A DNA stretch of 25,619 bases from Saccoglossus kowalevskii (lineage: Eukaryota > Hemichordata > Enteropneusta > Harrimaniidae), in the NCBI RefSeq assembly GCF_000003605.2, contig NW_003109081.1:444770-470388 (forward strand), given 5' to 3'. The translations under genes and the position numbers were made by a program. Below are positions 600 to 22,255 of the stretch, one piece after another. The notes beneath the pieces were generated by a model. It was given only the letters and a program-made list of their open reading frames with translations. It ran no database searches and was not told where the DNA came from. Each line of letters starts with the position of its first letter. Within the stretch, counting starts at the first letter, position 1.

Positions 600-603
600 T
601 TAA

Positions 604-1440
604 GGTAGAGATGCAGTTTACCTGACAGGTATTTTAATTAGTTAATTAGGAAACCAAGATGACCTCCCTTGTCCACAAAACTATATATTTTCGGAAAGCT
701 TATTTATGAATTTTAAAATGTTGTTAGTATTTTTATGGACACTGTAGTTTGAAATATGCACAAAAATGTGCTTTTTTGGTCAAAAGTGATTTAAAAAAAA
801 ATAGCTCTTAAACTATGCTTCTGTTTCATGTCAAAATTGGTTTGTGGGTACATCTGTTTACTATGAAGAAAGTGCCGTCTTGAAAACTGTCTAACAGTTG
901 TCAATTTTGCAGGGCAGCAGCCCAAATTTCACTACTTCAAGTTTATGTATAAATTAACACCCAGGCTAGTTGTCTGTACGATTGTTGTAACACTGTTCAA
1001 CCAAAAACAATGCCCCGACGGCGTTTTGAAGAGAAACACATTGTCAATCATTTATGAAAATTTCAAAAGCTCAAAGTGTCAAGGAGCTTTTTCTTTTTAA
1101 AGTTCTGGGATGTGGACTGAAAAAAAGCTGAGATAATTGCTAATTTGCATAACAATTCACTCAGTAAGAAGTTTACTAATGCTCATAATTAAAATGGCTG
1201 TAAACAATTCCAAATTTAAATGTATTATCGTTTTGTGAAAAGTTAAATATAGTGCATAATATGGAAATCCCGTCATTTCTATTTTTCACCATGTTTCTTT
1301 TTTATTATTTAATCGTTTTTTGAGTATGTTCCACTATTCACAATTCTACAAAATGTTAACAGTCTATAGCCAAAACTGTTTGGATAATAACAAGCAAAAA
1401 AAAAATCACTCCCAAGTGCCCACAAACCTGCATCTCTATT
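604..1440. mobile_element. Non-autonomous TTAA-flanked DNA element, copy 1
   Basis: An 837-bp element bounded by TTAA at 600-603 and 1441-1444, with short terminal inverted repeats (GGTAGAGATGCAG at the left, its slightly mutated complement at the right end). A second copy at 20059-20975 is similar over its whole length, which fixes both ends. There is no transposase reading frame, so it must have been moved by an enzyme encoded elsewhere. TTAA target duplication is typical of piggyBac-type elements, but the termini do not start with the usual CC, so the superfamily is left open. Relative to copy 2 it lacks about 67 bp of internal sequence near its right end. Confidence 0.82.
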
Positions 1441-1444
1441 TTAA

Positions 1445-4400
1445 GTGAGAAGATATCATTGTGAATAAAGCACTAATTACCTCTTGATGGGAAACAATAT
1501 AATGTAATCATCAATTTATACACGTAGGTGTTAATGGAATTGCAGTTTTAAAATAGGCCTCACGTAATTTCCTCATTAATTTTAATAATTTCAAAACTGC
1601 GTTCAGAGGTAAACTAATCGCTAACTGAAGATCTTTTAATGACAATCGCTTCAACTCGTGGGTCTAATGTGGCTGTGATATGTTGCAAAATAATAAAACC
1701 ACACTAGTCTTTCAGACAAATACGAATAGAGCTATTTCAACAAAACACCACGTTCGTACATCATATCAATTGATTTACATGTGTCTATTAATAATGCTTC
1801 ACGAGGCATATAATGTATTAAATATACATCTGACAATGGAATCAATAGAATTCACCCTCTTCCGTAAAACGCCGCACAGACGAGTTCGAATGTCTGCCTT
1901 ATTTGAAAATATTACATCACAGTCGAACAGTTTGTTTTGTTTACTTCAGGCGTAGAATCACTATCGGTGCGTTATAGGAGTATAATCTTGTCACTGGACG
2001 TAAACGTTCGCACAACGAAGAGTGTTTCTTTTCTATTTCAGGCTGTTTTATTACTACGAGCAGGTTAAAGATGTTTAATAATAAGGTTATCGCGATAATA
2101 ACGCAAAGTATGCACGAACGCAGAAAGGGAACGCGCTACGAGTCGGCCGATAAATCGCCGTGCTGTCTTTGTTTAGACTACCTGTAACATGACATCATAA
2201 TATTTCATCACAATATATTATCAAAGCTGCATGACAAAAATGCGTTTTACAAAGCCCACATCGAGACATGCAAATTAAATTAATCGTTCATGTTTCTTTT
2301 CTGATATTTGGGAAATAAGTAAAGAAATTAAACGATAATTGCGTTGAATGGTATTACTTTCCCATATGTATTAGAAACAATACCTTCTTATAAAAATGGC
2401 ACAGAACGACGTAGAAATAATTAGACTTTATGTTACTTAACATTAAAAACTGGCATCAACTGGCTACTAACGGACTTAGCAGACACACACGACATTTCAA
2501 ACAAATGAAAATTAATTAAATTCGGCCCCCATGTACATTTCGATTCTCTAATGAACAAGCAACACGTTTGACATTTCGTTACGAGTTTTCTATATTGCAT
2601 CACTGATAGATTTATTAACATCTCTCTAACTATTATAATAACCCTTTATAAATCTTGTAATTAAATGTTCTACATAATTTAATTTATTACACAAGCAATT
2701 TACATGGCATGCGTTGTACATATTAAAACAGGTTGAGCATGCAAGAGTAATTTGATAGATACGTCATGTCGAGATATCTTACTGATTCAATTAAATGAGT
2801 GTCCCAAGCTCTACCTTACAATTCATTCCATGTCTGTCCACACAGGGCATGCAAAGTTCATGTTTTTATCAGTGCCATGTCTTGCTGTAAAGGTGTCATA
2901 TCATCGTTAAAATGTTGTATATGCATATTATCTTCCTGAACATAAACAATTTAAACAAGACGAAAGGTTGGCAAACGAATTGCATATATATAATACACAA
3001 CGTGAATTAATGTGAATCTATATTATGTTGTATACGATTTTCAGTCAATGAGATATGATATCACTGACACTGACCGTCGCGAATTTATGCTAACTGATAA
3101 GCAGCACTATAAATTCCCGGAATTCTCTATGGTTTGTACAATTGGTCACCCATTTCTCGAAAAATTGTTACCGATTTACCATTGTTTGCCCTATTCAATA
3201 TCTATTTATCTGTTGTACATTTTTTCAAAAGTACGCTTATTATGTTGTAATGTGAGTCTCAAATGTGTTTATAAACTAAGTTTTATTTACTGTTGACAAA
3301 AACTCCACTACTCTAGTAAAACATTCAGGGATTTTGAAAAATATGAAGAAAAAAAATACATCTTCAGAATGCTTTAAGTATATCAACAAATGAATGTGCA
3401 CTGGTAACATTTACTAACCATTTTGCGACCAGTATATACTATTAATAACCAAGGGATTGAGGGTAATTGCGAGCACTGTATGTTGTGAGAATGAAATCGC
3501 ATGATGTTAAACTTTACTATTTAGTCACCTAGTAATCACCAATCGTAATTCTGAATGTCTATGCAAATCTCGAACAGACAACTGTTCCTGGAAATATTCG
3601 TTAACTACTCAGAGTGCGCTTTGCTAGAGAACGACCTGTGACACTAATTCTGATTGGCTGCTGTCGTTATACAATAACGAATTAAAGGCGACCAAAATTT
3701 AGTAATATTTTTTGGAGTTAATTACTAATATTATACAACATGGTTATATCACAGTCAAGCTTATAGTAAATAGGGTGAAAACTGAACAACAAATCATATT
3801 ATTAATAACTCGAAACGGAAATTGAATGTTAATGTATTCAGCATAGAAAAAACAAAATTGTTTGTGGCTGAGTGTTATTTTCAGCTGGACTTCTTGGTGG
3901 GTGGTTCTTACTCTACAGATTTTGTGACTTCAGATTACGACATTGTTTTTGCTATTGGATTTTCTCATATACAATTCTACATTGCAATGTGATGTAGTAC
4001 AGGAAAGATCGACAATGCATATCACATACTTTTACGTCACATACTTCCGAACTCTTTTTCAGTGTACCAGCTGCTTGAAGGTTGTCCGGATCTTCCAGGT
4101 TTATTTACGGTCCAATTACTACGGATTTTGTTAGAATGGTTTATTTTAGGAATCTCGTGTGTGTTTATTTGAAATTATTATACAGTTCCTACCCAGAGAT
4201 CGGTTGAAATTTACATTACCGTCAGGGTAGCGTCGACCCAAGCCTGCACCTCGCGGCAATCACTTGAGTCTGTCGCCGATAACCAAATGAAAACAATATT
4301 GGATATTCGATTAAGTACCTTCCTGTTACGAACATAAATTAATATTTAGTGGGAGAAGGTTGAATAAGATGAGGTGGTACGTGACTTCAAACAAATGATA

Positions 4401-9883: not shown

Positions 9884-12800
9884 CTGGAACTATAAGGTTA
9901 GGGGTTCGTCAATTATCATCGGGTTTGATCATAGCGGGACAAGCTTAAATTCAGCAATTGTAAAATAGATTCGAAAGATGCATGTATTATAAATCACAAC
10001 GTAAATACCTGCTACGAGGGTTTGGAAACCAGCGTTGTAGTCACACGCCACCTCATTCTTAACGTAGTCTTTGCGGTTGTCATCCCAATCATCAGAACAG
10101 TTTGGACCTCCTACCATAGCCCCACGCAGTAGGTGATGATTCGGACCATCATAGTTGAAACTGTTGGAGTTAGTGCATGTCTCGGTGATCACGGGACAGG
10201 AGCTATGTAGAAATAACAGTTAGAATACACGTTTACTGACTCAGTATTTGTATCAACTTCGCACGTGTCGATATTTGTAATTGCTCTGACGTGATGAGAA
10301 CATGTTATTTATCATGAACTAAAAACGTTCTTACAGCACTTTCTCTAATAGGCATTTGCGCTGTTTGTTTTGCTATGTACAATACCAATCGTTTCTGCAC
10401 ATGCGTATGAGTGTTTTCATTTGTCATCGAACGGGTACTGTCTTAAGTGCTGCAAAATTGTAATCGAATTTCTTCTTCAACATACTGTACCAAAAGAATA
10501 TATTAATTATTTGCTTTTTGTCTTGCATATGTAAATGGTAGGGTTATTTGAGCAGTAATAGTGAAATCAGGTAGGTGTTATACCAATCTTATAAACGCCA
10601 TCTTGGGAGGTGAATTTTACGAAGCATTAATGGGCTAAAGTCTCATGAGTAGAGTAAATATGGAGGGGTTTAATGTGAATGTTGAGAGCTCAGAGGCCTG
10701 CCACAGTATGGCACATGTGGAGAGGTTTATGGACGGGAGACAATGGTGTGGATAGAAGGAACATTTGAGAATTACTTTTAAAGAGAGATGTCAAACTGTC
10801 AGTTGCAGGGAAACTGATTTTAATTTTTCGGTCACATCAGCGAGAAAATCAAGTGGTTATAAATTGGTTATTATTCTTTTTTTTAAATACTGCTCATTAG
10901 CTAACTCGCCGTAACTATGTCACGTGTTCTTACCTTCCCCTGTGGTGGGGACGAGTTGGTGGGTTTTCGCCAACTCCTACTACGTAACTATGGCCAGAGG
11001 AACCAAGAATATAGTCCAGTTGTGACTTGGCGAAATTCCTGTATGCTGGTGCTCTGATTCCGTAATGGGATGCAATAACTGCTAGGGCAGCAGAGTTACC
11101 TGGAATGAAATAACAGATTAATAGTATGTAGATTATATCAGTGCTCAATACCAAATATAGAACCAATTTTGAATTACCCAAGACAATAAGAAATATGAAC
11201 AGAGGAATTCATCAACCTTTTATTTAATAAGAGGTGATTCTAAAAGTAAATGGTTTAACTTTAATTAAGTGTTTCCAAACTGTGTTTAGCCGGTGAAATA
11301 TGACATTTCATTAATACATGTTCAAAGTTTGATGTTGGACGCAAATTGACGCTAAGCTCTCATTGGGAGCGTGGGAGCCACGAGATTTCTGACAGACAAT
11401 GTTCCCCTGACATAAACAAGTCTCGTGACTCCTCTGCGACGAACATTTGGGTCTGAGGTCTATTAGATGCCAAAGTCTCATTTATTACTTATGGAGCAAT
11501 TAGCGAAAGTCGTACGGGTTCGTTTTCCTGAGATACCATGGCACGTTGTCTAAGCACATGACTTTCATTCTATCAACAACCAGACTACAAATGTGACAGC
11601 ACATATAACAGTAAAATAAAGTCACCTACCAGCCCATCGCAGAGAACCCCATGCGTCCCTGCAGGCAAGACCTTTAGGCGTGTAAGTCACAGTTCCACCC
11701 GGCAGCCAACCATTCATGTATGATTTGAAATGTCTCCAGTATTTCTTTTTAAGGTTTTTATTAATATCTTTGTGAATGTAGCCCATTAGAAGCTGAGATA
11801 AGAACACGAACAGTTACACATGTGTGACGAAGCATCCACCATGTGACGGATACTGGTATATTTATATATACCGAGAACAATAGATCGTCTAATATTCCAA
11901 CTATTTGAGATATTTCCACTAATATATATCTTTTAGTATTTTACCTTATTGAACATAAATGTCAACTTTTGTCACATTTTACGAAACAAACCTTCATAAT
12001 GTTTAAAGATAATCTGTAGCCAACGGTAAGTTATGTTTTGTTCAAAATTGACAAAGGAATTACAGAAAAAAAACATCAAAATGGCGGGACAAACTATGGT
12101 GTCAAAACACAACTCCGTTTATTCAAGACAGACCATTAATTAATTCGGTAGGCTGGCTAAGTTGGGCTATTGCGCATGCGCATATCATGGGTGATCAAAA
12201 TAGTAAGGTGTTCTAATCTAACTTGGCATTTTCTAAAACCTGTTAGTTGGTCTGATTGTTTTTAAATAATCGTTATTTTACGACAATGTTTGCATTTATG
12301 TTTGAGAAGTACATTTATCTATATAAAGACAAACAGTTTTTGAACATATCAATCATCAATCAAATATTTTATTTTACCTAATAATATACACTTGTAGTTT
12401 ACAAAACAAGAATCAATTATAAATAGGTAAAATAGGAACCAGAAATAGCCGTTGGCTAATCTAGTCTGATTCCTCAAAAAACAAATGAATTACACTATCT
12501 TTGAGGGTGATTTATAGAAGGCCAAAATGTAACAATGATCATAACGAATTGTCATGCTAAACCGTACCTTGAGTCCCTCTCGCTTGTCGTTCCATCCGTA
12601 TACGTAAGATTTCCTGTTCAGGTTTTTTGAATCGTATAAGTTAACTGCCTCTTGTCGGTACCACTCGTCACCGGTCAACCAGTATAACCAGATGGCGGCC
12701 CATGCAACCTCGTCCCAGGCTCCGTTTGATCTACAGTTAAATATTTATATCAAACGAAATTAGTCGTTTTTATAATTAACTTCAACGATTCACGGGTATG

Positions 12801-15800
12801 CACAGAGTATTCAAGCATTTCAGTACAGTTTTGGAGTTCTTTACACAATTTTGGTATTTTTCATGCAGTTAGGCTATGCTTTCGGTTTTGTCATATTGGT
12901 ACGGTGCGCATACTAACTACGGCAATGTATATAAACTAGTAAATAAACAAATTTTAATCGTGGAAGTAAAGTTCCGTAGTATGACGTCATATTCATGATG
13001 GCGACCAATACACCGAAACAATGAGATTCAAATTTCAGTTTCCAACGCTTTACGAACAGTTTCGGAGCACCGTTTTCACTACTCTACTTATTTGTTGGGT
13101 TATTCGAGTGGAAAAAGTTTCATGGTTTGGCTGAACTGATAAAAAAATGCAATTTTTGGTCTGCACTAGTTTTAGTTCACCTTGTATGATAATAAGTAAG
13201 GTATCTTATAAATCATTAGTATTATACATATTACATTAGTATTATACATACTACATTAGTATTATACATACTACATTAGTATTATACATAAAATTACTAG
13301 TATTATACATACTACATTAGTATTATACATAAAATTACTAGTATTATACATACTGATGATTACACCACTGATGATTAAAAAAAAGGAACTACAGAAAAAC
13401 AAGAGCTAAAGAACTGTAACTACCGACAAACAAACACAGTCACTTCTTACTTGTAATATATAGTTGGGGGATACAGTCCTGGATGGTTTAGTGCAAACAT
13501 GAAGAGAGACTTCGCTTTATCTTCACACTCTGACGCGTAGTTTGTATCTGAAAAAAAGTACGAAATAAAAAAATACAGTTTAGTTTGTCAGTGTTTGTAG
13601 TCTGGCATTAGTAATTGTAATTCGAGCTCAAGTCAGGTTTTAAGTCGAGGAACTCAGTTATATCCATATATATTAATACGAGTAAGTTGTCTATTTTAGT
13701 GTAGGTCTGTTGCTATCGACTCATTATTACTTACCGAAATGTTCGAAAACTTTGGCGCATCCAGCCAAAGCAGCTGCTGTTTCACCTGCAACGTCAGCAC
13801 CAGAGTCCTCTATTTGGTATGATGGTCGTGTTGATGAAATGTTTTCTGGTCGATTCCATTGACTGTGATCAACACCAGGATCGCCGACCTGGTGGTGGGC
13901 GGATGTAAATAAAATGGTTACTTGTTTCTGGTCAGGTTTAGTAGGTACATGAAATTATTATGCTAATTATTTGGAAAATTCACACGTTTCCGTGACGTCA
14001 ATGAAAGGTCTAAAGGACGCCATTTTGAAGCGTTGTTATTGTTTTTAATCTGTGGTCATGACGTTCCAAATAAAGAAAATGCATGGCTACTGCCATGCCA
14101 TGAATACACGACCAAACAAAGTTTCCATCTGAAAAGGATTTGTCACAGCAATCTACGTCATGTGAAGTCACAGAAGCGCCCCTAAGCTAGAGGGCGCACC
14201 TTGCAGCAAAACGATTACGTGCCGTACGCCCTTATAGTATCTACCAAATATGCACTCAAACTGACTGGCTCACCTGGTGATAAAACACATCAGCACTGGG
14301 GTGACACTTTATGAAATAGTCACAATTCCATTTCAAAAGGTCCCTGGTGCTTTTGTCTTCCCCTGCATCAATATATGCATCTTCGAATTCGATGTAACTC
14401 CATGCCATCATAGTTGTAGTCCAGGCCATTGGAAGGTTGAACTTGATGTGATCACCAGCTGTAATTTGAATGAATGAATGAAATTTATTTCACCAAAAAA
14501 TAAAACATTAAAGGTAGAAATTGTACAGGTAATAAATATATATAAATAAATAACGAATTCTACTTAGCGTACTTTGCTTTTTTTGACGGGGATTACAGAT
14601 ATAGTTCATCAGAACTATTCGAGTCCGTAACCCCTGTATATATATTTTCATAGTTTAATCACACAAATCTCCAAATGAAAGAGAAACAAAAATTACAAAT
14701 CAAATATTGAAGAGATATTTATATTTATTGCTGAGATCAAAGACAAATAAACAAGTTTGTAACTTGCAGAGAAAAAAATGTCTAGTATTCTTAGTTTTTG
14801 AAAAAGAGGAACAGCATGGGAATACGAATCAGAGAAAGTGATGAGACGTACTATTTGTTTCTGTAAGAGATATATTGGTTGAACTAGAATAGCATATGTA
14901 TTACCCCAGATTTCGAGGCAATATGTAATGTGTGGAAGAATTAAGGAGTTGTACAAGAGAATAAATATATGTCTAGGTAAAATGACGTAGTTGTAAAATT
15001 AATCCAATTTTTGGTGCAATAACTTTGCAAATGTTATCAATGTGAACTATCCATGACATATTCTGGTCAATAGAGACGCCAAGGTAATTGACGATTTAGA
15101 AACAGAATAAATGTTGCCATCTTTTGGCGTCTTTCCATTATTCGAAATCGTTTTAGTTTGCATATAATTACGTTCATTTAATTGTGATACATCAGTTATT
15201 TTAATAATGCATATTATTGCTTTTTTTATTTTTTATATTATGGCAGTAAAGTGCATTAAAGCAATGTAATATTAATATTTAAATATACTGTGTAATAACA
15301 AATCCTCGTAATTCTGATTGATCTATGCAAGCATCCTGTGATTGAAATTTTGATACCGTGACTGATTAATTGTATATCTTATCTAAGATATAATAATATG
15401 TTATACAACCGTCTATACGTCAAGAAATATATCTAATCCTCCCACTTTGTTTGCCTAGTGGCCATTTAAAACGGATCGTGTACATACCAAAGATTTCCCT
15501 TCACAATTAATTATCACTTTACTAATGTATCCCAGAATACCGTAGATATATTGATGTATTGTTTTCCAAATCGATGACGGCATTAGTAGTTCACGCACAG
15601 CGATCAATTATGCAACGAAGACACGACGCTCTTCGAAGACGTTAATATGGTTTCTTAGTTTTATTGTGTTTGCAAAAGCAGAGAAACGGATAAACGGAAT
15701 AGCAGGATTAGTGCGTACTACCAGCAACTGAATGCGTTGTAGACTGAATTAGTTCGCCACGTCTGGCGTGTTTAAAATGTAAATCATGGTTATTAGATAA

Positions 15801-17377
15801 AGCATACCAAGTATATAATAAATTTTCTTGGGTTTGAATGTGACAATCTGTTGATGAACACGTCGAATGACGACTTATTATACATATTTGGTTGTTTTTC
15901 CTTATCATACTATTAAAAGAAATGACATAAATTGACTTGTCTTATTTCGATATGACGTAATAAGTTTGTTTCATGTAAAATATTTATGTGATATATTATT
16001 AAAATTATTCACTATACACAGAAAACTGAATCATGATTCTCAATAGTACACGTACATAGTACGCGTGAATTAATAGGTCAATTCGCTCATGATGATATGT
16101 GTATGTGGGTAAACTGAATACAACGTACCATCATACATGCCCCCGCTAAGGTCTTCTCCGTTCGCACCTGTGTCAAACTGTGCAATATCTGGTTTACGCC
16201 ATTGTACTCGCCCATCTTCGGGCACTGGCCCTGAACGCTGGGCTTCGAAGAACTCAACTGAAGCAATTAGAGCATCGCGGTAATCATAACCTGGAAGGAG
16301 GATAAACATTTTTTTATACGACATATCAATTTGATTTTCTTTCTGAATTATCTATCAATGCACAAAATAATGAGCAAAACATATGAAGCGGCGAGTCGTA
16401 CTTCGATGAGTATTCAACTGGTGCAACCGGTTTGGAGGCGTGTTTTTGTTTTTTTTTGGCCAGAATGTGTTTGGAGAACAACAGCTATAACTCGTATATC
16501 AAACGACCCATACTTGTACTCCGCTTATCGATTCCATCTTCCGCTTTGTAAACATCGTCATTATCAGGTACATGGGGACTTAGGTCATCATTGGGCCGGT
16601 TAGGAGGCGGTTGCTCGTACAATTCTCTATGAACATGTACTGCATGGAGGTAAAACCGGGATTCGAAATTAGCGGTGGTACTGCGTCCGAAAACCACCAT
16701 ATATTCATTTCCTCACTTAAGATTTAGTCATCGGTCATCGATTTTGACGACCACTCAGAAACTCGAAATTATGAAACTAATATGTTTATGTAAAATAAAC
16801 TGCAGCTACAATCAGTCGGTTGTTTAAACGATATTGAACACTAGAGAATGTTTTCTTTCCTTAGTAATGTCATGTTTTGCGGTTGCAAACTCGTTCTTAA
16901 GGTATTTCGAATCGGAGGTTGGCATAAAAAATGCACATTTAAAACGTATCAAAATCATGAACCCTATATCACACCATCTATTGTGAATCAAATTAGGTGG
17001 GTTCTGCGTCGGCTTATAAATACGCTTTAGATTTTGGGAAAGTGCGTCAAAAGTACAGATGGTGATTTCTGCCCTCTGTGTTTCTAAATGTCGTTTCGTC
17101 TATTTTGGACGGATAATGATGATTTAAATCGTTTTGTTTTAGTGAGGGGAAAGGCTGCTTAATCTAAAACTCAATGACACACACAAAAACGATTGAAGTT
17201 CATACCTGTACTACGCTTATCTATTCCACCATCCACTTCGTAAACATCGTCGTTATCGGGTACGTCAGGACTTGGGTCATCCAATGGCAGATTTGGAGGC
17301 GGTTGTTCGTACACTTCACTACGAACATATACTGCAAGAAAATACACTAGGGATAAAGCAAGTGGTAGACGAGACAT
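9819..17377 (-). CDS. Glycoside hydrolase family 9 endoglucanase (complete, 10 coding exons)
   Basis: The product is a secreted endo-beta-1,4-glucanase of the animal GH9 family, which cleaves internal bonds of cellulose-like glucans with inversion. Coding exons (minus strand, 5' to 3'): 17377-17206, 16290-16129, 14458-14274, 13888-13735, 13547-13451, 12730-12568, 11792-11630, 11099-10934, 10202-10009, 9883-9819. All internal borders are GT/AG and the sum is 1521 bases, 506 residues plus stop. Layout: signal peptide about 1-20, acidic Pro-rich propeptide 21-55 ending in Lys-Arg, GH9 domain about 58-490. Catalytic landmarks are DAGD at 111-114, RPHHR at 415-419 and the general acid Glu in [12 protein letters not shown] near 471. 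Introns and the TATA promoter rule out bacterial contamination. Exon 1b may be added. The last exon is the least certain part. Exons are listed individually below. Confidence 0.93.
10009..10202 (-). CDS. GH9 exon 9: catalytic Asp and Glu
   Basis: Completes Ser421 and encodes 422-485 plus one base of codon 486. It contains [20 protein letters not shown], then [16 protein letters not shown]. The Glu in KNEV is the general acid, and the Asp cluster is part of the GH9 active site. The acceptor is CTACATAG, the donor G|GTATTT. Confidence 0.96.
10934..11099 (-). CDS. GH9 exon 8: catalytic-site RPHHR motif
   Basis: Completes Gly366 and encodes 367-420 plus two bases of codon 421. It reads [34 protein letters not shown] and [15 protein letters not shown] is the conserved active-site histidine motif of GH9. 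The acceptor is ATTCCAG, the donor AG|GTAAGA. Confidence 0.96.
11370..11437. repeat. Short inverted repeat in GH9 intron 7
   Basis: GGAGCCACGAGATTT on the left matches AAGTCTCGTGACTCC on the right with two mismatches, separated by about 35 bases. It is a possible hairpin in the intron; no function can be assigned. Confidence 0.5.
11630..11792 (-). CDS. GH9 exon 7
   Basis: Encodes residues 312-365 and the first base of codon 366. It begins LLMGYIHKD and ends in [18 protein letters not shown], the TPGGL...WGSLRYA block of GH9 enzymes. The acceptor is TATCTCAG, the donor G|GTAGGT. Confidence 0.93.
12347..12475 (-). mobile_element. LINE 3'-UTR remnant in GH9 intron 6
   Basis: Only the 3' end of a LINE is left. 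On the minus strand it has the stem-loop at 12474-12434, about 70 bases of AT-rich sequence, an AAATAAAA block and a short tail of TTGATTGATGATTGAT. No coding part remains. The family assignment rests on the stem-loop shared with the LINEs at 14463-15110 and 24984-25619. Confidence 0.6.
12434..12474 (-). other. LINE 3'-UTR stem-loop, copy 1
   Basis: The minus strand reads AGGAATCAGACTAGATTAGC and then CAACGGCTATTTCTGGTTCC. The outer arms AGGAA(T)CAGA/TCTGGTTCCT pair with one mismatch, and the inner TAGCC/GGCTA is perfect. It matches the design of the other two copies although primary sequences differ. Confidence 0.7.
12568..12730 (-). CDS. GH9 exon 6
   Basis: Completes codon 257 and encodes 258-311. 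It contains [20 protein letters not shown], the conserved block with substrate-binding aromatic residues, then YGWNDKREG (the WDDK-type motif). The acceptor is CTGTAG, the donor AAG|GTACGG, and the exon ends in phase 0. Confidence 0.95.
13213..13356. repeat. Minisatellite in GH9 intron 5
   Basis: About seven tandem units of roughly 20 bp built on CATTAGTATTATACATACTA. The last part is a higher-order repeat: a 41-bp dimer, in which one unit reads AAAATTACTAGTATTATACA, occurs twice in a row. It lies wholly within the intron between exons 5 and 6 and is likely length-polymorphic. Confidence 0.88.
13451..13547 (-). CDS. GH9 exon 5
   Basis: A 97-bp exon completing codon 225 and encoding 226-256 plus two bases of codon 257. 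It reads [20 protein letters not shown], matching the helix that follows GETAAALA in the family. The acceptor is TTTTCAG, the donor AA|GTAAGA. Confidence 0.92.
13735..13888 (-). CDS. GH9 exon 4
   Basis: Encodes residues 174-224 and the first base of codon 225. It includes [15 protein letters not shown] and the [16 protein letters not shown] motif, both hallmarks of the GH9 (alpha/alpha)6 barrel. The acceptor is CACCAG, the donor G|GTAAGT. Confidence 0.95.
14274..14458 (-). CDS. GH9 exon 3: DAGD nucleophile-activating motif
   Basis: Completes Ala112 and encodes 113-173. The exon 2/3 junction forms [16 protein letters not shown], the conserved GH9 motif whose aspartates activate the catalytic water. 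It continues to [20 protein letters not shown], also family-typical. The acceptor is preceded by a tract of ATTC repeats that is the 3' tail of a LINE. The donor is CAG|GTGAGC. Confidence 0.95.
14463..15110 (-). mobile_element. LINE remnant in GH9 intron 2
   Basis: The minus strand carries the C-terminal part of a CR1/L2-like reverse transcriptase in broken frames. [12 protein letters not shown] followed by an IG.ILQLRHF motif lies near 15090-14985, then a frame from 14956 with [20 protein letters not shown] and [10 protein letters not shown]. After a stop near 14693 follows a 3' untranslated region with the stem-loop at 14588-14634, ending in (ATTC) repeats at 14465-14480. It is 5'-truncated and degenerate, with several stops and shifts. 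The insertion is in the same orientation as the host gene and its tail ends a few bases before the exon 3 acceptor. No target duplication was confirmed. Confidence 0.85.
14588..14634 (-). other. LINE 3'-UTR stem-loop, copy 2
   Basis: On the minus strand GGGGTTACGGACTCGAATAG pairs with the downstream CTATATCTGTAATCCCC: an outer GC-rich stem, an internal unpaired ACTCGA-type block, and an inner stem GTTC/GAAC with a short loop. The same architecture occurs at 12434-12474 and 25146-25189. Confidence 0.75.
15111..16003. other. Remainder of GH9 intron 2, nothing recognisable
   Basis: AT-rich intronic DNA between the LINE remnant and the outer end of the inverted-repeat arm. A short minus-strand continuation of the LINE (to about 15230) is possible but too decayed to support. 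No exon with family motifs is expected here, because exons 2 and 3 join perfectly. Confidence 0.5.
16129..16290 (-). CDS. GH9 exon 2: start of the catalytic domain
   Basis: Encodes residues 58-111 plus the first base of codon 112. It opens [20 protein letters not shown] and includes the RVQWRKPD and LSGGMYD motifs that start GH9 domains. The acceptor is CCTTCCAG, the donor G|GTACGT. A shorter, frameshifted copy lies at 21738-21862. Confidence 0.95.
16514..16639 (-). CDS. GH9 exon 1b: tandem duplicate of the propeptide exon, probably alternative
   Basis: A 126-bp exon-like block with acceptor TGCAG|TACATG and donor ACAA|GTATGG. Both borders are phase 1 and the length is a multiple of three, so it can be included or skipped without changing the frame. 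It encodes 42 residues parallel to the propeptide of exon 1 ([25 protein letters not shown]), including a second Lys-Arg. Inclusion gives a 548-residue enzyme with two propeptide modules. The frame is open and its sequence is protein-like. Whether it is spliced in cannot be told from DNA. Confidence 0.72.
17206..17377 (-). CDS. GH9 exon 1: signal peptide and acidic propeptide
   Basis: Encodes residues 1-57 and the first base of codon 58. [20 protein letters not shown] is a classical signal peptide. It is followed by a segment with four Pro-rich clusters and about eleven acidic residues in 33 positions, ending DKRST. Lys54-Arg55 lies directly before the catalytic domain and looks like a proprotein convertase site, so residues 21-55 may be a removable propeptide (inference). 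The donor is CAG|GTATGA. An internal CTTGCAG encoding Leu-Ala-Val matches the splice acceptor of exon 1b, showing the two exons share an origin. Confidence 0.92.
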
Positions 17378-17433
17378 GACTGCTCGACCGGGTCTCGATT
17401 CTTGATGATGGCGAGACAGTCGAACATCCACTG

Positions 17434-17441
17434 TTTATATA
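17434..17441 (-). promoter_or_regulatory. TATA box of the GH9 gene
   Basis: TATATAAA on the minus strand, 57 bases before the ATG at 17377, with CCAAT a few bases further upstream. Transcription would be expected to start about 30 bases downstream, near 17410. That places the upstream in-frame ATG at 17431 outside the transcript and supports the ATG at 17377 as the start. The same box and its surroundings are preserved in the inverted copy at 19475-19482. Confidence 0.75.
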
Positions 17442-17899
17442 CCTTTTTCTGAATATTGGAAATAAAAGGTACACATACATTCGTGTAACTCGTTATTCTG
17501 TGTTCGGATTGCAAATAAACCTCCCATCGACCAGACTATTGTGAAATTGCATTTCCTGTTGGGGACAAACAGTTGGGGACAGTTAAATTCCTTTTAAAAA
17601 ACAACGGACCCCACGTCTTATGGTATTATTTCGGAAATAAGGTGAGAAGAATTGATGGCGAGGTCGTTTATGTTCCAATATTAAAAAAAAAATTGTCTCG
17701 CTGCACGAACCATCAAAAATGTATACCAAACAAAGTGGTTCTCAAAAACGAATAATAGAGAATCAAATTGCGGTATTCAACATCCCGAAAAGATGACAAT
17801 CGTTATGTATCGTGACGTAACATCTTAATTACTTAAGTGTTTGCAGTTACCACACTACTTTACAGCACGTACGCTTTAAAACATACAATTAAGAGATAT

Positions 17900-18638
17900 C
17901 AGTTACCAGGTTAGGGAAAGAGCGTCTGCCAAATAAAGCCTATAAAATGCTTTTAAATATGCACAATAATGGCAAACGCACATGGGCTACTGAAATAATG
18001 CTCCTATTAGACAATTTAGGTTTTGGCACAGTCTGGAAAAATCAAGGCGTTGAAAACAGTAAAAATTTTCTATTAGAGTTCAAAAGCCGTGCGCAAAATG
18101 AAGGTAAAAGAATTTGGTACTCGGATATACGTACGGCGGATAAAAAAACAGATCATTATCGACAATTTAAATTTAACTCTGGCAGAGAAATGTACTTAAA
18201 GCTTTCAGTCAACACAAAACTTCGTAGAGCATATGTCCGTTTAAGATGTTCAGATCACCCCCTAGCTATAGAAGTCGGTAGACACAAAAGAATCGCCAGA
18301 GAGTATAGAATTTGCGATCTATGTTTGTCTGAAATTGAAGACGAGTTCCATTTCCTTCTAAAATGCCCAAAACTCAGCATATTCAGGCAAACATTTCTCC
18401 CCAGTCTCTCCAGGACCATGCAGCAAACACCTTGCAGGATTTTCACAAGATAATGGCATCAGACAACCCGACTGATATTGAAAGTGTTGCTTTATTTTGT
18501 TTTGATGTATTTAAAATTTAAAGAGAAATTGTAATTTAAGTCTTTTATATTTTATTTTCAAACCTATGACAGAAATGTAAGGATTTATTATTATTTGCGT
18601 ACATGGGCCAGAGGCCTAAATACGAATAAAGTTATTAT
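17900..18638 (+). mobile_element. 5'-truncated LINE with 13-bp target-site duplication
   Basis: The element is flanked by direct repeats AATTAAGAGATAT at 17887-17899 and 18639-18651, the signature of target-primed insertion. It carries the C-terminal part of a LINE reverse-transcriptase protein and a 3' untranslated region. That region ends near a GGGCCAGAGGCCTAAA block and AATAAAGTTATTAT. The element is 739 bp, so most of the LINE is missing at the 5' side, as is usual. It lies in the spacer of the inverted repeat. Confidence 0.92.
17911..18453 (+). pseudogene. LINE reverse transcriptase, C-terminal region
   Basis: An open frame of 180 codons to the TAA at 18451-18453. It opens LGKERLPNKAYKMLLNMHNN, continues with KRTWATEI and FGTVWKNQG, and ends with a zinc-knuckle-like CDLCLSEIEDEFHFLLKCP (C-x2-C...H-x4-C), all typical of the C-terminus of non-LTR retrotransposon proteins. 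The catalytic reverse transcriptase and the endonuclease are absent because of 5' truncation. The first supported codon lies upstream of the first ATG (17947). The frame is still intact, so the insertion may be fairly young. Confidence 0.88.
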
Positions 18639-19474
18639 AATTAAGAGATATTTCCTTTCATTTTGTTGAAGGTTGCATTTTTAGTCTCCATCTTGAGGTT
18701 AATGACGAAATGTTCTTCAGATAAAGGTGTTTCTTCTAGTATTATGTTACTTAATTTAAAATGAGTTTCGATAAATAATGATTTGATTGACGTATCAGTA
18801 TTTCTAGTGTCCAAATGCGATACCCTCATCGGAGCTTAAACTTTGCGAAAATACTCATCTGTTTTTACTCATATATATAAACGTTCACAGTCACCTTGTG
18901 TCTGTTTTGAGTAATCACAAACCCTAAAACAAAACGTAAATTTGTGAAAAAAAGTGAATTCGAAAACTCGTCACGTTTCTGGAAATTGACAATATGAAAT
19001 ATACACATCGGAAATAAATAAATTTGTAAAAATATATATATTTACAGTATAATACATGTACATGAGATATTTAATCAGTAATTATGGTGTTACGTCACAA
19101 TACATCACGATTGTCGAGTTCGGCATCTTTTCGGGATGTTGAATACCGCAATTGTGTTCTCTATTATTCGTTTTTGAGAACCACTTAAAATGTTTGGTAT
19201 ACATTTTTTAGGGCTCGTGGAGCGAGATAATTTTTTTTAATATTGCAAAATAAACGACGTCGGCCACAATTCTTCTCACCTTATTTTCGAAATAATACCA
19301 TAAGACGTGGGGTCCGTTGTTTTTTTAAAGGAATTTAACTGTCCCCACTGTTTGAGCAGGAAATACAATTTCACAATAGTCTGGTCGATGGGAGGTTTAT
19401 TTGCAATCCGAACACAGAATAACGAGTTAAACGAATGTATGTGTACCTTTTATTTCCAATATTCAGAAAAAAGG

Positions 19475-19482
19475 TATATAAA
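19475..19482 (+). promoter_or_regulatory. TATA box of the inverted GH9 5' copy
   Basis: TATATAAA preceded by CCAATATTCAG, as in the functional copy at 17434-17441. It directs transcription rightward, away from the GH9 gene, so the two promoters are head to head about 2 kb apart. Confidence 0.65.
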
Positions 19483-19538
19483 CAGTGGATGTTCGACTGT
19501 CTCGCCATCATCAAGAATCGAGAACCGGTCGAGAAGCA

Positions 19539-21862
19539 ATGTCTCGTCTACCACTTGCTTTATCCCTAGTGTACCTTCTTGCAGTATATGTTCGTAGTGA
19601 ATTGTACGAACAACCGCCTCCCAATCTGCCATTGGATGACCCAAGTCCTGACGTACCCGATAACGACGATGTTTACGAAGTGGATGGTGGGATCGATAAG
19701 CGTAGTACATGTATGAATCAATTTGTTGTGTCATTGAGTTTTTGACTGAGCCTTTCCCCTCACTAAAACAAAATGATTTAAATCATCATCACCCTTCAAA
19801 AATATACGAAATATGCGTATTATTTTCAATTGGTTTAACAAACAAAATTGTTCAGATATGTGTATATGATACGCTAAAATTACATTTAGAAACATAGAGG
19901 GCATAAATCACCATCTGTACTTTTGACGCACTTTCCCTCAATCTAAATCGAATATCTATTGTTTTGTTCATCATCTACTAGGATGCGAAATTATTTTCAA
20001 GCGTGCTAATCTGTTCAGATCACAGTCTTTATTTTCTGGTGGATCAATGTCAACTTAAGGTAGAGATGCAGTTTACCTGACAGGTATTTTAATTAGTTAA
20101 TTAGGAAACCAAGATGACCTCCCTTGTCCACAAAACTATATATTCTCGGAAAGCTTATAGTATGAATTTTAAAATTGTTTTATTATTTTTTTTATGGACA
20201 GTGTAGTTAGAAATATGCACACAAATTGGCATTTTTGGTCAAAAGTGATTTAAAAAAAATTAGCTTCTAAACCATGCTTCTGTTTCCTGTCAAAATTGGT
20301 TTATGGGTACATCTGTTTACTATGAAGAAAGCGCCGTCTTGAAAACTGTCTACCAGTTGTCAATTTTGCAGGGCAGCAACTCAAATTTCACTTCTTTAAG
20401 TTTATGCATAAATTAACACCCAGGCTAGTTGTCTGTACGATTGTTGTAACACTGTTCAACCAAAAACAATGCCCCGACGGCGTTTTGAAGATAAACACAT
20501 TGTCAATCATTTGTGAAAATTTCAAAACAAAAGGTAAAAGCGTCTAGGAGCTATTTTTTTTAAAGTTCTGGGATATGCACTAAAAAGAAGCTGAGATAAT
20601 TGCTAATTTGCACAACAATTCACTCAGTAAGAAGTTTGCTAATGCCCATAATTAAAATGGCTGTAACAGTTCCAAATTTAAATGTATTATCGTTTTGTTA
20701 AAAGTTAAATATAGTGCATAATATGGAGATCCCGTCATTTCTTTTTTTCACCATGTTTCTTTTTTATTATTTATGTACAGCCTTGCTAAATCTTGCTAAG
20801 CATTCAAAAGAAAGAATGTTTGCACCTGTTATCTATTTTAAAATCGTTTTTTGAGTATGTTCCACTATTCACAATTCTACACAATTTTAACAGTCTATAG
20901 CCAAGACTGTTTGGATAATAAAAAGCAAAAACAAAAAATTTCACTCCCAAGTGCCCACGAACCTGCATCTCTACCTTAAGCAATTATAGTATTTTTATGC
21001 ATATGCAGAACCCACTTAATTTTATTCACGAAGAAGAGGCCCTTTAGCAATTGTTAAACACAAATTAGTGCGATATAGTGTTTAAGATTTCCATACGTTC
21101 TAAATGTGCATTTTTTTTGTTCACCCCGATTCGAAATACCTTAAGAGTGAGTTTGCAACCGCATACATGACATCACTATTGAAAAAAACAACATTATTTT
21201 CTTGTGTTCGATATTGTTTAAACAACCGATAATGATGACTGCCTACTTCTTGCTGATGCAAATTAGGTATTGTAGCTGCAGTCTGTTTTGCATAAAAAGT
21301 CTCATAATTTCGAGTTTTTGAGGGTGACCGCCGACTAAATCTGATGATTTAAATGAATCTAAATGAATATATGGTGGTTTTCGGGCCCAGTACCAGCGCT
21401 AATTTCGAATCCAGGTTTTACCTCCCTGTAGTACATGTTCGTAGAAAATTGTACGAGCAACCGCCTCCCAACCTGCCCAAAAATGATAACGTGTTTACAA
21501 TGTGGAAGATTTTATCGATAAGCGTAGTAAAGGTATGGGTCGTTTGATATACGAGTCATGGCTGTTGTTCTCTAAACATTTTCTGGCCAAAAAAAAAACG
21601 GTTGCACCAGTTGAATACTCATCGGAGAACGACTCGCCGCTTCATATGTTTTGCTCATCATTTTATGCACTGACAGATAATTCAGAAAGAAAATCAAATT
21701 GATATGTCGTATAGAAAATTGTTTGTCCTCCTTCCAGGTTATGATTATCGTGATGCTCTGTCGGCGTCAGCTCAGTGCCCGAAGATGGGCAAGTAAAATG
21801 GCGTAAACCAGATATTGCTCAGTTTGAAGAAGAAAAAGACCTTAGCGGGGGCATGTATGATG
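19539..21862 (+). pseudogene. Truncated GH9 paralogue (exons 1, 1b, 2 only)
   Basis: Exon 1 (19539-19710) is intact, with signal peptide [20 protein letters not shown], the acidic propeptide and DKRST. The donor is now CAT|GTATGA, still usable. Exon 1b (21432-21532) is 101 bp instead of 126 and is frameshifted. Exon 2 (21738-21862) is 125 bp instead of 162; spliced to exon 1 it reads [19 protein letters not shown] and then a stop. Exons 3-10 are absent. No enzyme can be made. If transcribed, a short secreted peptide of about 76 residues could result (inference). In exon 1 four of six substitutions before the last base are silent. Confidence 0.85.
20059..20975. mobile_element. Non-autonomous TTAA-flanked DNA element, copy 2
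   Basis: A 917-bp copy of the element at 604-1440, in the same orientation, flanked by TTAA at 20055-20058 and 20976-20979. Its terminal inverted repeats, GGTAGAGATGCAG and CTGCATCTCTACC, are perfect. It contains about 67 bp near 20773-20841 that copy 1 lacks. It sits in the first intron of the inverted GH9 copy and is missing from the left arm, so it arrived after the inverted duplication or was lost from the other arm. Confidence 0.88.
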
Positions 21863-21998
21863 GTACGTTGTATTCAGTTTAGCCACATACACAAATTAAC
21901 ATCAACATTAACGAATTGACCAATTAATTCACGCGTACTATGTACGTGTACTATTGAGAATCATGATTCAGTTCTCTGTGTATAGTAAATAATGTTGC

Positions 21999-22255
21999 AT
22001 GGTAACTCAACGTTATTTGCCGCCACACTATTGCAGAAGTGTTATGATGGAGACTCAGGACAACATGGCACACGTGGGACGGAATAACAGTATAGAACTG
22101 GCGAGGTCGCATTTTTACTGGCCAAGTATGGCACGCAAAATTGCTTGAAGGATCCGCCAGTATGGACACTGTCTACATGGAAAAGTTAATCCAGCCAGAC
22201 TGCGTAACGCGCCGCTCAAACCTATGCTTTCAACTCATCTGTTGGAGTTATTGTG
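21999..22255 (+). pseudogene. Gypsy-type integrase zinc-binding region, broken
   Basis: Translation from 22008 gives LPPHYCRSVMM, MAHVGRNNSIELARSHFYWP and SMARKIA, the H2C2 zinc-binding region at the start of a Ty3/Gypsy integrase. A TGA stop at 22146-22148 follows, then RIRQYGHC and THLLELLCI in the same frame. One His and one Cys of the HHCC finger are replaced. The catalytic core expected next is missing. It is a dead remnant, oriented rightward. Confidence 0.8.

What the first reader, a model, noticed from the sequence alone, without database searches (positions are those of the whole stretch)
16004..21993. Inverted segmental duplication of the GH9 promoter and first exons
The left arm (16004-17834) and right arm (19077-21993) are inverted copies of a block holding the promoter, exon 1, exon 1b and exon 2. 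The arms end before exon 3, so only the functional copy keeps the enzyme. A head-to-head promoter pair about 2 kb apart results. Reading across the whole palindrome would give a hairpin RNA able to act on the gene's own 5' region; transcripts from the two promoters alone would not be complementary.
Basis: seen in the sequence. Interest (0 to 1): 0.75.

Follow-up and report, generated by a model that had tools for sequence, protein, structure and literature searches.

The report
Inverted relic of a cellulase gene
Beside a working-looking animal cellulase gene lies an old, partly decayed mirror-image copy of that gene's start region, a real but ordinary kind of gene-fragment duplication with no sign so far that it does anything.

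Summary
The 5' end of a GH9 cellulase gene (minus strand, start codon at 17377) has an inverted copy to its right. Arms: left 15960-17899 plus 18639-19030, right 19045-21996. The "spacer" is mostly more left arm, split by a LINE-like insert with a 13-bp target-site duplication; the right arm carries a roughly 0.9-kb insert.

New evidence lies outside the window: about 20 kb away on the same scaffold is a second copy of the palindrome, without these two inserts but running into the same right-hand flank. Arms differ by 3-17% by segment. A fold-back assembly artefact is therefore very unlikely, and the inversion predates the split of the two copies.

The right arm keeps promoter and exon 1, but exons 1b and 2 are broken. 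Evidence for selection on its promoter and exon 1 is weak and mixed (p=0.23 and p=0.016 in two tests). Most likely it is a decaying, truncated inverted duplicate. A hairpin RNA would need a third promoter and is untested; precedents exist in Drosophila and poplar. Whether copy 2 is a tandem paralogue or the other haplotype is unsettled, as is some gene conversion between arms.

The parts
10001..17377 (-). GH9 cellulase gene, coding part: E1 17377-17206 (start codon, signal-peptide-like start, acidic segment ending in KR), E2 16290-16129, E3 14459-14271, E4 13885-13730, E5 13545-13462, E6 12729-12565, E7 11747-11634, E8 11100-10936, E9 10198-10001 (limits of E3-E9 approximate)
   Evidence: Exon peptides located; 7 of the 8 pieces E2-E9 match PF00759, in order with gaps from position 1 to 443 (E7 below the family cut-off, E5 no match); E1 and E2 join in frame by GT/AG
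15960..17899 (-). Left arm, outer and main part: promoter, exon 1, exon 1b, exon 2, parts of introns
18639..19030 (-). Left arm, inner continuation beyond the LINE-like insert
   Evidence: Matches copy 2 482087-482490 on the plus strand at 90% and its inverted partner 483255-482928 at 83%
17900..18638 (+). 5'-truncated LINE-like insert inside the left arm, flanked by the 13-bp target-site duplication AATTAAGAGATAT (17887-17899 and 18639-18651)
   Evidence: 29 of 36 matches lie off C344, with 5' starts from query position 69 to 770, and 18 of the 29 end at query 797-811; empty site in copy 2
19045..21996 (+). Right arm: inverted copy of promoter, exon 1 (19539-19709, open frame), broken exon 1b (25-bp deletion) and broken exon 2 (28-bp and 9-bp deletions)
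20060..20971 (.). Insert in the right arm, absent from the left arm and from copy 2; resembles window 600-1445 (direct, 90-93%)
16514..16639 (-). Exon 1b: diverged tandem copy of the 3' part of exon 1, with AG before and GT after, in frame between exon 1 and exon 2; use unproven
   Evidence: 16509-16644 against 17201-17336, 82%; splice test
17434..17441 (-). TATA-like box of the left promoter
   Evidence: read by eye
19475..19482 (+). TATA-like box of the right promoter
   Evidence: read by eye
22020..22148 (+). Retroelement integrase fragment just beyond the right breakpoint
   Evidence: PF17921 Integrase_H2C2, E 1.3e-6

Best explanation
It is an old inverted segmental duplication of the 5' end of a GH9 cellulase gene, made at the DNA level (introns kept) and broken off in intron 2 next to retroelement sequence. 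The left copy continues as the gene. The right copy is a truncated relic that keeps a promoter and an open exon 1 but cannot make the enzyme. After the palindrome formed, the whole block came to exist in two versions (tandem duplicate or two haplotypes); each then took its own insertions, and the window's version also lacks about 0.84 kb at its centre that copy 2 has. Shown: geometry, common right-hand flank, private inserts, broken exons, palindrome older than the split of the copies. Inferred: that the relic is non-functional, that the central difference is a loss, and that the inversion arose by ordinary break repair or template switching.
For: Arms aligned. Second palindrome at C344:481619-486280 with arms 481620-482499 and 483741-482919 and a 419-bp loop. 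Both right arms pass from intron 2 into the same integrase-bearing flank (466383-467104 against 485815-486623; R1 lacks about 50 bases at the junction that R2 has). Divergence in intron 1 and the next stretch: L1-R1 30/206 and 36/224, R1-R2 27/314 and 18/255; flank between copies 174/2456 = 7.1%. LINE-like insert with target-site duplication in copy 1 and empty site in copy 2. Right-arm exon 2 broken differently in R1 (28-bp and 9-bp deletions) and R2 (one extra base). Right-arm branches: core 17/678 against intron 30/806, p=0.23; left branch plus R ancestor: core 6/339 against intron 45/403, p=1.2e-7, as expected if only the left copy is under selection.
Against: Both right arms keep an open 57-codon exon 1. 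R1-R2 substitutions in the core are fewer than in the rest of the arm (17/339 against 134/1485, p=0.016) and so are indels (1 against 25, p=0.07), so weak constraint on the right promoter is not excluded. The excess of left-only differences seen in the introns (L1 45, R1 14, R2 16) is missing not only in the core (6, 5, 12) but also in the upstream stretch 17833-17546 (8, 14, 10) and in 16514-16001 (15, 24, 14); selection on the left copy or patchy gene conversion between arms could cause this. A few quartet sites group the arms of one copy together (4 sites against 3).
Confidence: 0.8

Rival explanations
1. Hairpin-RNA locus: a transcript crossing both arms folds into a long hairpin, is cut by Dicer, and the siRNAs act on the 5' end of the GH9 mRNA or its promoter.
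For: 334 of 1815 left-arm 21-mers have an exact reverse complement in the right arm, with exact runs up to 68 bases, several of them in promoter and exon 1. Precedents: D. [quoted passage not shown] poplar inverted ARR17 fragments (PMC9636151, passages).
Against: Neither arm promoter transcribes both arms; a third promoter is needed, and RNA data that could show one are not on hand. Two inserts and many indels interrupt the duplex.
Confidence: 0.06
2. Assembly artefact: fold-back chimera, or two haplotypes joined head to head.
For: The window lies between two N runs of 6082 and 11230 bases. Copy 2, on the next contig, could be an allele placed in tandem, so placement errors are possible here.
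Against: Arms differ by 3% (proximal promoter) to 17% (exon 1b) with private insertions; a fold-back would be near-identical. The palindrome is found independently on a second contig. Haplotypes are not expected head to head (general knowledge).
Confidence: 0.04
3. The right arm is a live second promoter: a divergent transcription unit giving a short secreted peptide or a chimeric transcript, perhaps kept similar by arm-to-arm gene conversion.
For: TATA box and open exon 1 kept in R1 and R2; core more alike between L1 and R1 (11/339) than elsewhere (161/1374, p=5e-7), and R1-R2 core slower than the rest of the arm (p=0.016); 4 quartet sites join L1R1 and L2R2; left-only differences are not in excess upstream, in the core or at the exon 2 end.
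Against: Selection on the left copy alone can explain the L1-R1 similarity: right-arm branches do not slow significantly in the core against introns (p=0.23). The quartet is 4 against 3, three of the four within 11 columns. The last base of exon 1 before the donor GT is T in R1 and R2 where the gene has G.
Confidence: 0.1

Closest known systems
Inverted tandem duplication of GSTT2/GSTT2B in African apes (PMC3375281; abstract and one section read)
   Same: Gene duplicated in inverted orientation next to the parent; copies dying in humans; gene conversion between copies
   Different: 29-kb region with the whole gene, dying copies 99.4% alike; here only the 5' part, arms 83-97% alike by segment (substitutions only) and no clear conversion
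Drosophila simulans hpRNA loci, e.g. the one beside ballchen (PMC10317233; passages, including one from the abstract)
   Same: Inverted repeat made from the 5' part of a neighbouring gene
   Different: There siRNAs and primary transcripts of hpRNA loci are reported; here the gene itself forms one arm and no RNA evidence exists
Poplar ARR17 partial inverted duplicates (PMC9636151; passages, including one from the abstract)
   Same: Partial gene copies in inverted orientation including exon 1
   Different: On another chromosome than the target, with 24-nt siRNAs and promoter methylation reported
Unprocessed truncated pseudogenes in tandem gene clusters (recalled)
   Same: Intron-bearing fragment beside its parent on a scaffold with another GH9 gene
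   Different: Inverted orientation and present in two versions

Membership tests
Inverted segmental duplication (truncated unprocessed pseudogene) | Two diverged inverted copies of the same genomic block | tested here: met
Inverted segmental duplication (truncated unprocessed pseudogene) | Introns kept, gene truncated, coding exons disrupted | tested here: met
Inverted segmental duplication (truncated unprocessed pseudogene) | No sign of selection on the relic | tested here: inconclusive
   Branch test p=0.23; pairwise core test p=0.016
hpRNA / endo-siRNA locus | Inverted repeat homologous to a target gene | tested here: met
hpRNA / endo-siRNA locus | One primary transcript spanning both arms | not testable with these tools
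   No RNA data; arm promoters point away from each other
hpRNA / endo-siRNA locus | Dicer-dependent small RNAs from the arms | not testable with these tools
   No small-RNA data
Assembly fold-back artefact | Near-identical arms, no private insertions | tested here: not met
Gene-converting palindrome | Arms within a copy closer to each other than to their counterparts in the other copy | tested here: inconclusive
   4 sites against 3; introns group R1 with R2, other segments do not
GH9 cellulase (left gene) | Exons covering the GH9 domain in order | tested here: met
   E5 had no match and E7 was below the cut-off, so positions 169-211 and 270-294 are not covered by a match

The most novel reading that the evidence does not exclude
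A palindrome made from a digestive enzyme's own promoter and first exons, carried in two versions, works as a cis-born hairpin-RNA or divergent-promoter switch that tunes one GH9 gene of the cluster.
Probability: 0.07. Interest if true: 0.6.

Novelty: new member of a known kind. Interest (0 to 1): 0.27.

Why it matters
It gives an example, orderable in time, of how partial inverted duplicates form, double and decay in an animal genome rich in cellulase genes. If small RNAs came from it, it would be an animal RNAi locus caught near birth beside its target. As it stands it is ordinary genome turnover.

Tried and rejected
Fold-back or haplotype artefact: rejected, because arms are diverged and the palindrome is repeated on another contig. 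Retrocopy: rejected, introns kept. Right arm derived from another GH9 paralogue: the left-arm DNA gave 10 matches, all on C344 (4 in the window, itself included, and 6 in copy 2); the exon 1 peptide gave 6 matches at E up to 1, all on C344, one of them (48% identical) at C344:434896-435027 near the neighbouring GH9 gene. These searches score only the best candidates and skip very common words. Gene conversion as cause of the near-identical core: not needed, since selection on the left copy can explain it, but not excluded. Copy 2 as allele or tandem paralogue: undecided. Among the 65 matches reported for the gene body (40 of 180 candidates scored) none is a second close copy of the exons; those besides the window's own are dispersed repeats and two exon stretches of the neighbouring gene. 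Both contigs end within about 0.7 kb of the last shared stretch. Either reading remains open. A search for genome copies of the right-arm insert (20040-21000) did not complete, so its nature rests on its second copy at window 600-1445 alone. Whether the N runs are assembly gaps or withheld sequence is not known.

Full report
What is there. It lies exactly between two N runs. A GH9 gene runs on the minus strand: exon 1 begins with a start codon at 17377, and the exon pieces located match PF00759 in order, with gaps, from profile position 1 to 443 (7 of the 8 pieces E2-E9 match, E7 below the family cut-off, E5 not at all). Exon 1 itself has no Pfam match (left copy, right copy). The best of 18 solved structures matched by a hand-joined query was an endoglucanase, 1ks8.

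The arms. The 5' part of this gene is present again, inverted, on the right: 17094-17833 against 19811-19077 at 90%, and 16001-16974 against 21996-21068 at 76% including gaps. Exon 1 of the right arm is open over 57 codons with two amino-acid changes against the left; exon 1b has lost 25 bases, exon 2 has lost 28 and 9. The right arm ends in intron 2 and is followed by a retroelement integrase fragment.

Beyond the window. A whole-genome search with the left arm gave 10 matches, all on C344: 4 in the window (itself included) and 6 that form a second palindrome at 481619-486280. There the left arm (cut by the contig start) and right arm pair as 481620-482499 and 483741-482919 around a 419-bp loop. 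Comparison shows that the window's "spacer" is left arm (18639-19030) split by a LINE-like insert at 17900-18638 with a 13-bp target-site duplication and an empty site in copy 2. Of the 36 matches of the spacer, 29 lie off C344 and 18 of these share the 3' end (query 797-811), as 5'-truncated LINE copies do; its open frame had no Pfam match above the cut-off, so "LINE-like" rests on this pattern. The window's copy lacks about 0.84 kb of loop and inner right arm present in copy 2 (482491-483333). The window's right-arm insert is also missing from copy 2, which has an insert of its own (about 484873-485814). Both right arms run into the same integrase-bearing flank, R1 lacking about 50 bases at the junction.

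Order of events. Because both copies hold the palindrome and the same outer flank, the inversion predates the split of the copies. Divergence agrees in intron 1 and the following stretch: left and right arms differ by 15-16%, the two right arms by 7-9%, the flanks of the two copies by 7.1% (174/2456). It does not agree everywhere: upstream (17833-17546) and around exon 2 (16514-16001) the left arm is not the odd one out (8, 14, 10 and 15, 24, 14 differences private to L1, R1, R2). Copy 2 may be a tandem duplicate or the other haplotype.

Is the right arm used? Proximal promoter plus exon 1 is unusually alike between the arms (11/339 differences against 161/1374 elsewhere, p=5e-7). Splitting changes by branch, with the introns as yardstick, the slow-down sits on the left branch plus right ancestor (6/339 against 45/403, p=1.2e-7), while the right branches change at 17/678 in the core and 30/806 in introns (p=0.23). 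Selection on the left gene explains this. Against that reading, the plain R1-R2 comparison gives fewer changes in the core than in the rest of the arm (17/339 against 134/1485, p=0.016), and the upstream and exon 2 segments above fit patchy gene conversion as well as selection. Weak constraint and some conversion are therefore not excluded. These tests compare segments chosen after seeing the alignment and treat sites as independent.

Hairpin idea. 334 of 1815 left-arm 21-mers have an exact partner in the right arm, so a transcript over both arms could form Dicer substrate. The arm promoters point away from each other and give no such transcript. Cases of RNAi loci from partial inverted gene copies are published (passages), so the idea is sound in kind but has no evidence here.

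Verdict. A real, old, decaying inverted partial duplicate; a new example of a known kind.

Noticed in passing
16514-16639: Exon 1b, a tandem copy of the 3' part of exon 1, would insert 42 codons in frame, repeating the acidic segment ending in KR; a possible cassette exon.
   Followed up: partly
600-1445: A repeat at the left end of the window, 90-93% like the insert in the right arm, same orientation. Genome copy number not obtained.
   Followed up: partly
13210-13354: Tandem array with periods 20 and 41, lying between GH9 exon pieces E5 and E6.
   Followed up: no
14467-15094: Stretch between exon 3 and exon 2 with dispersed genome copies, including a long minus-strand frame at 14693-14998.
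   Followed up: no
C344:429275-435027 (outside the window): Neighbouring GH9 gene on the same strand; four exon stretches 72-85% alike and a related exon 1 nearby.
   Followed up: partly
C344:481619-500264 (outside the window): The next contig is matched by the right part of the window in pieces scattered from its first base to about 0.7 kb from its end (roughly 5.7 of 18.6 kb, my sum): tandem duplicate or alternate haplotype placed in tandem.
   Followed up: partly
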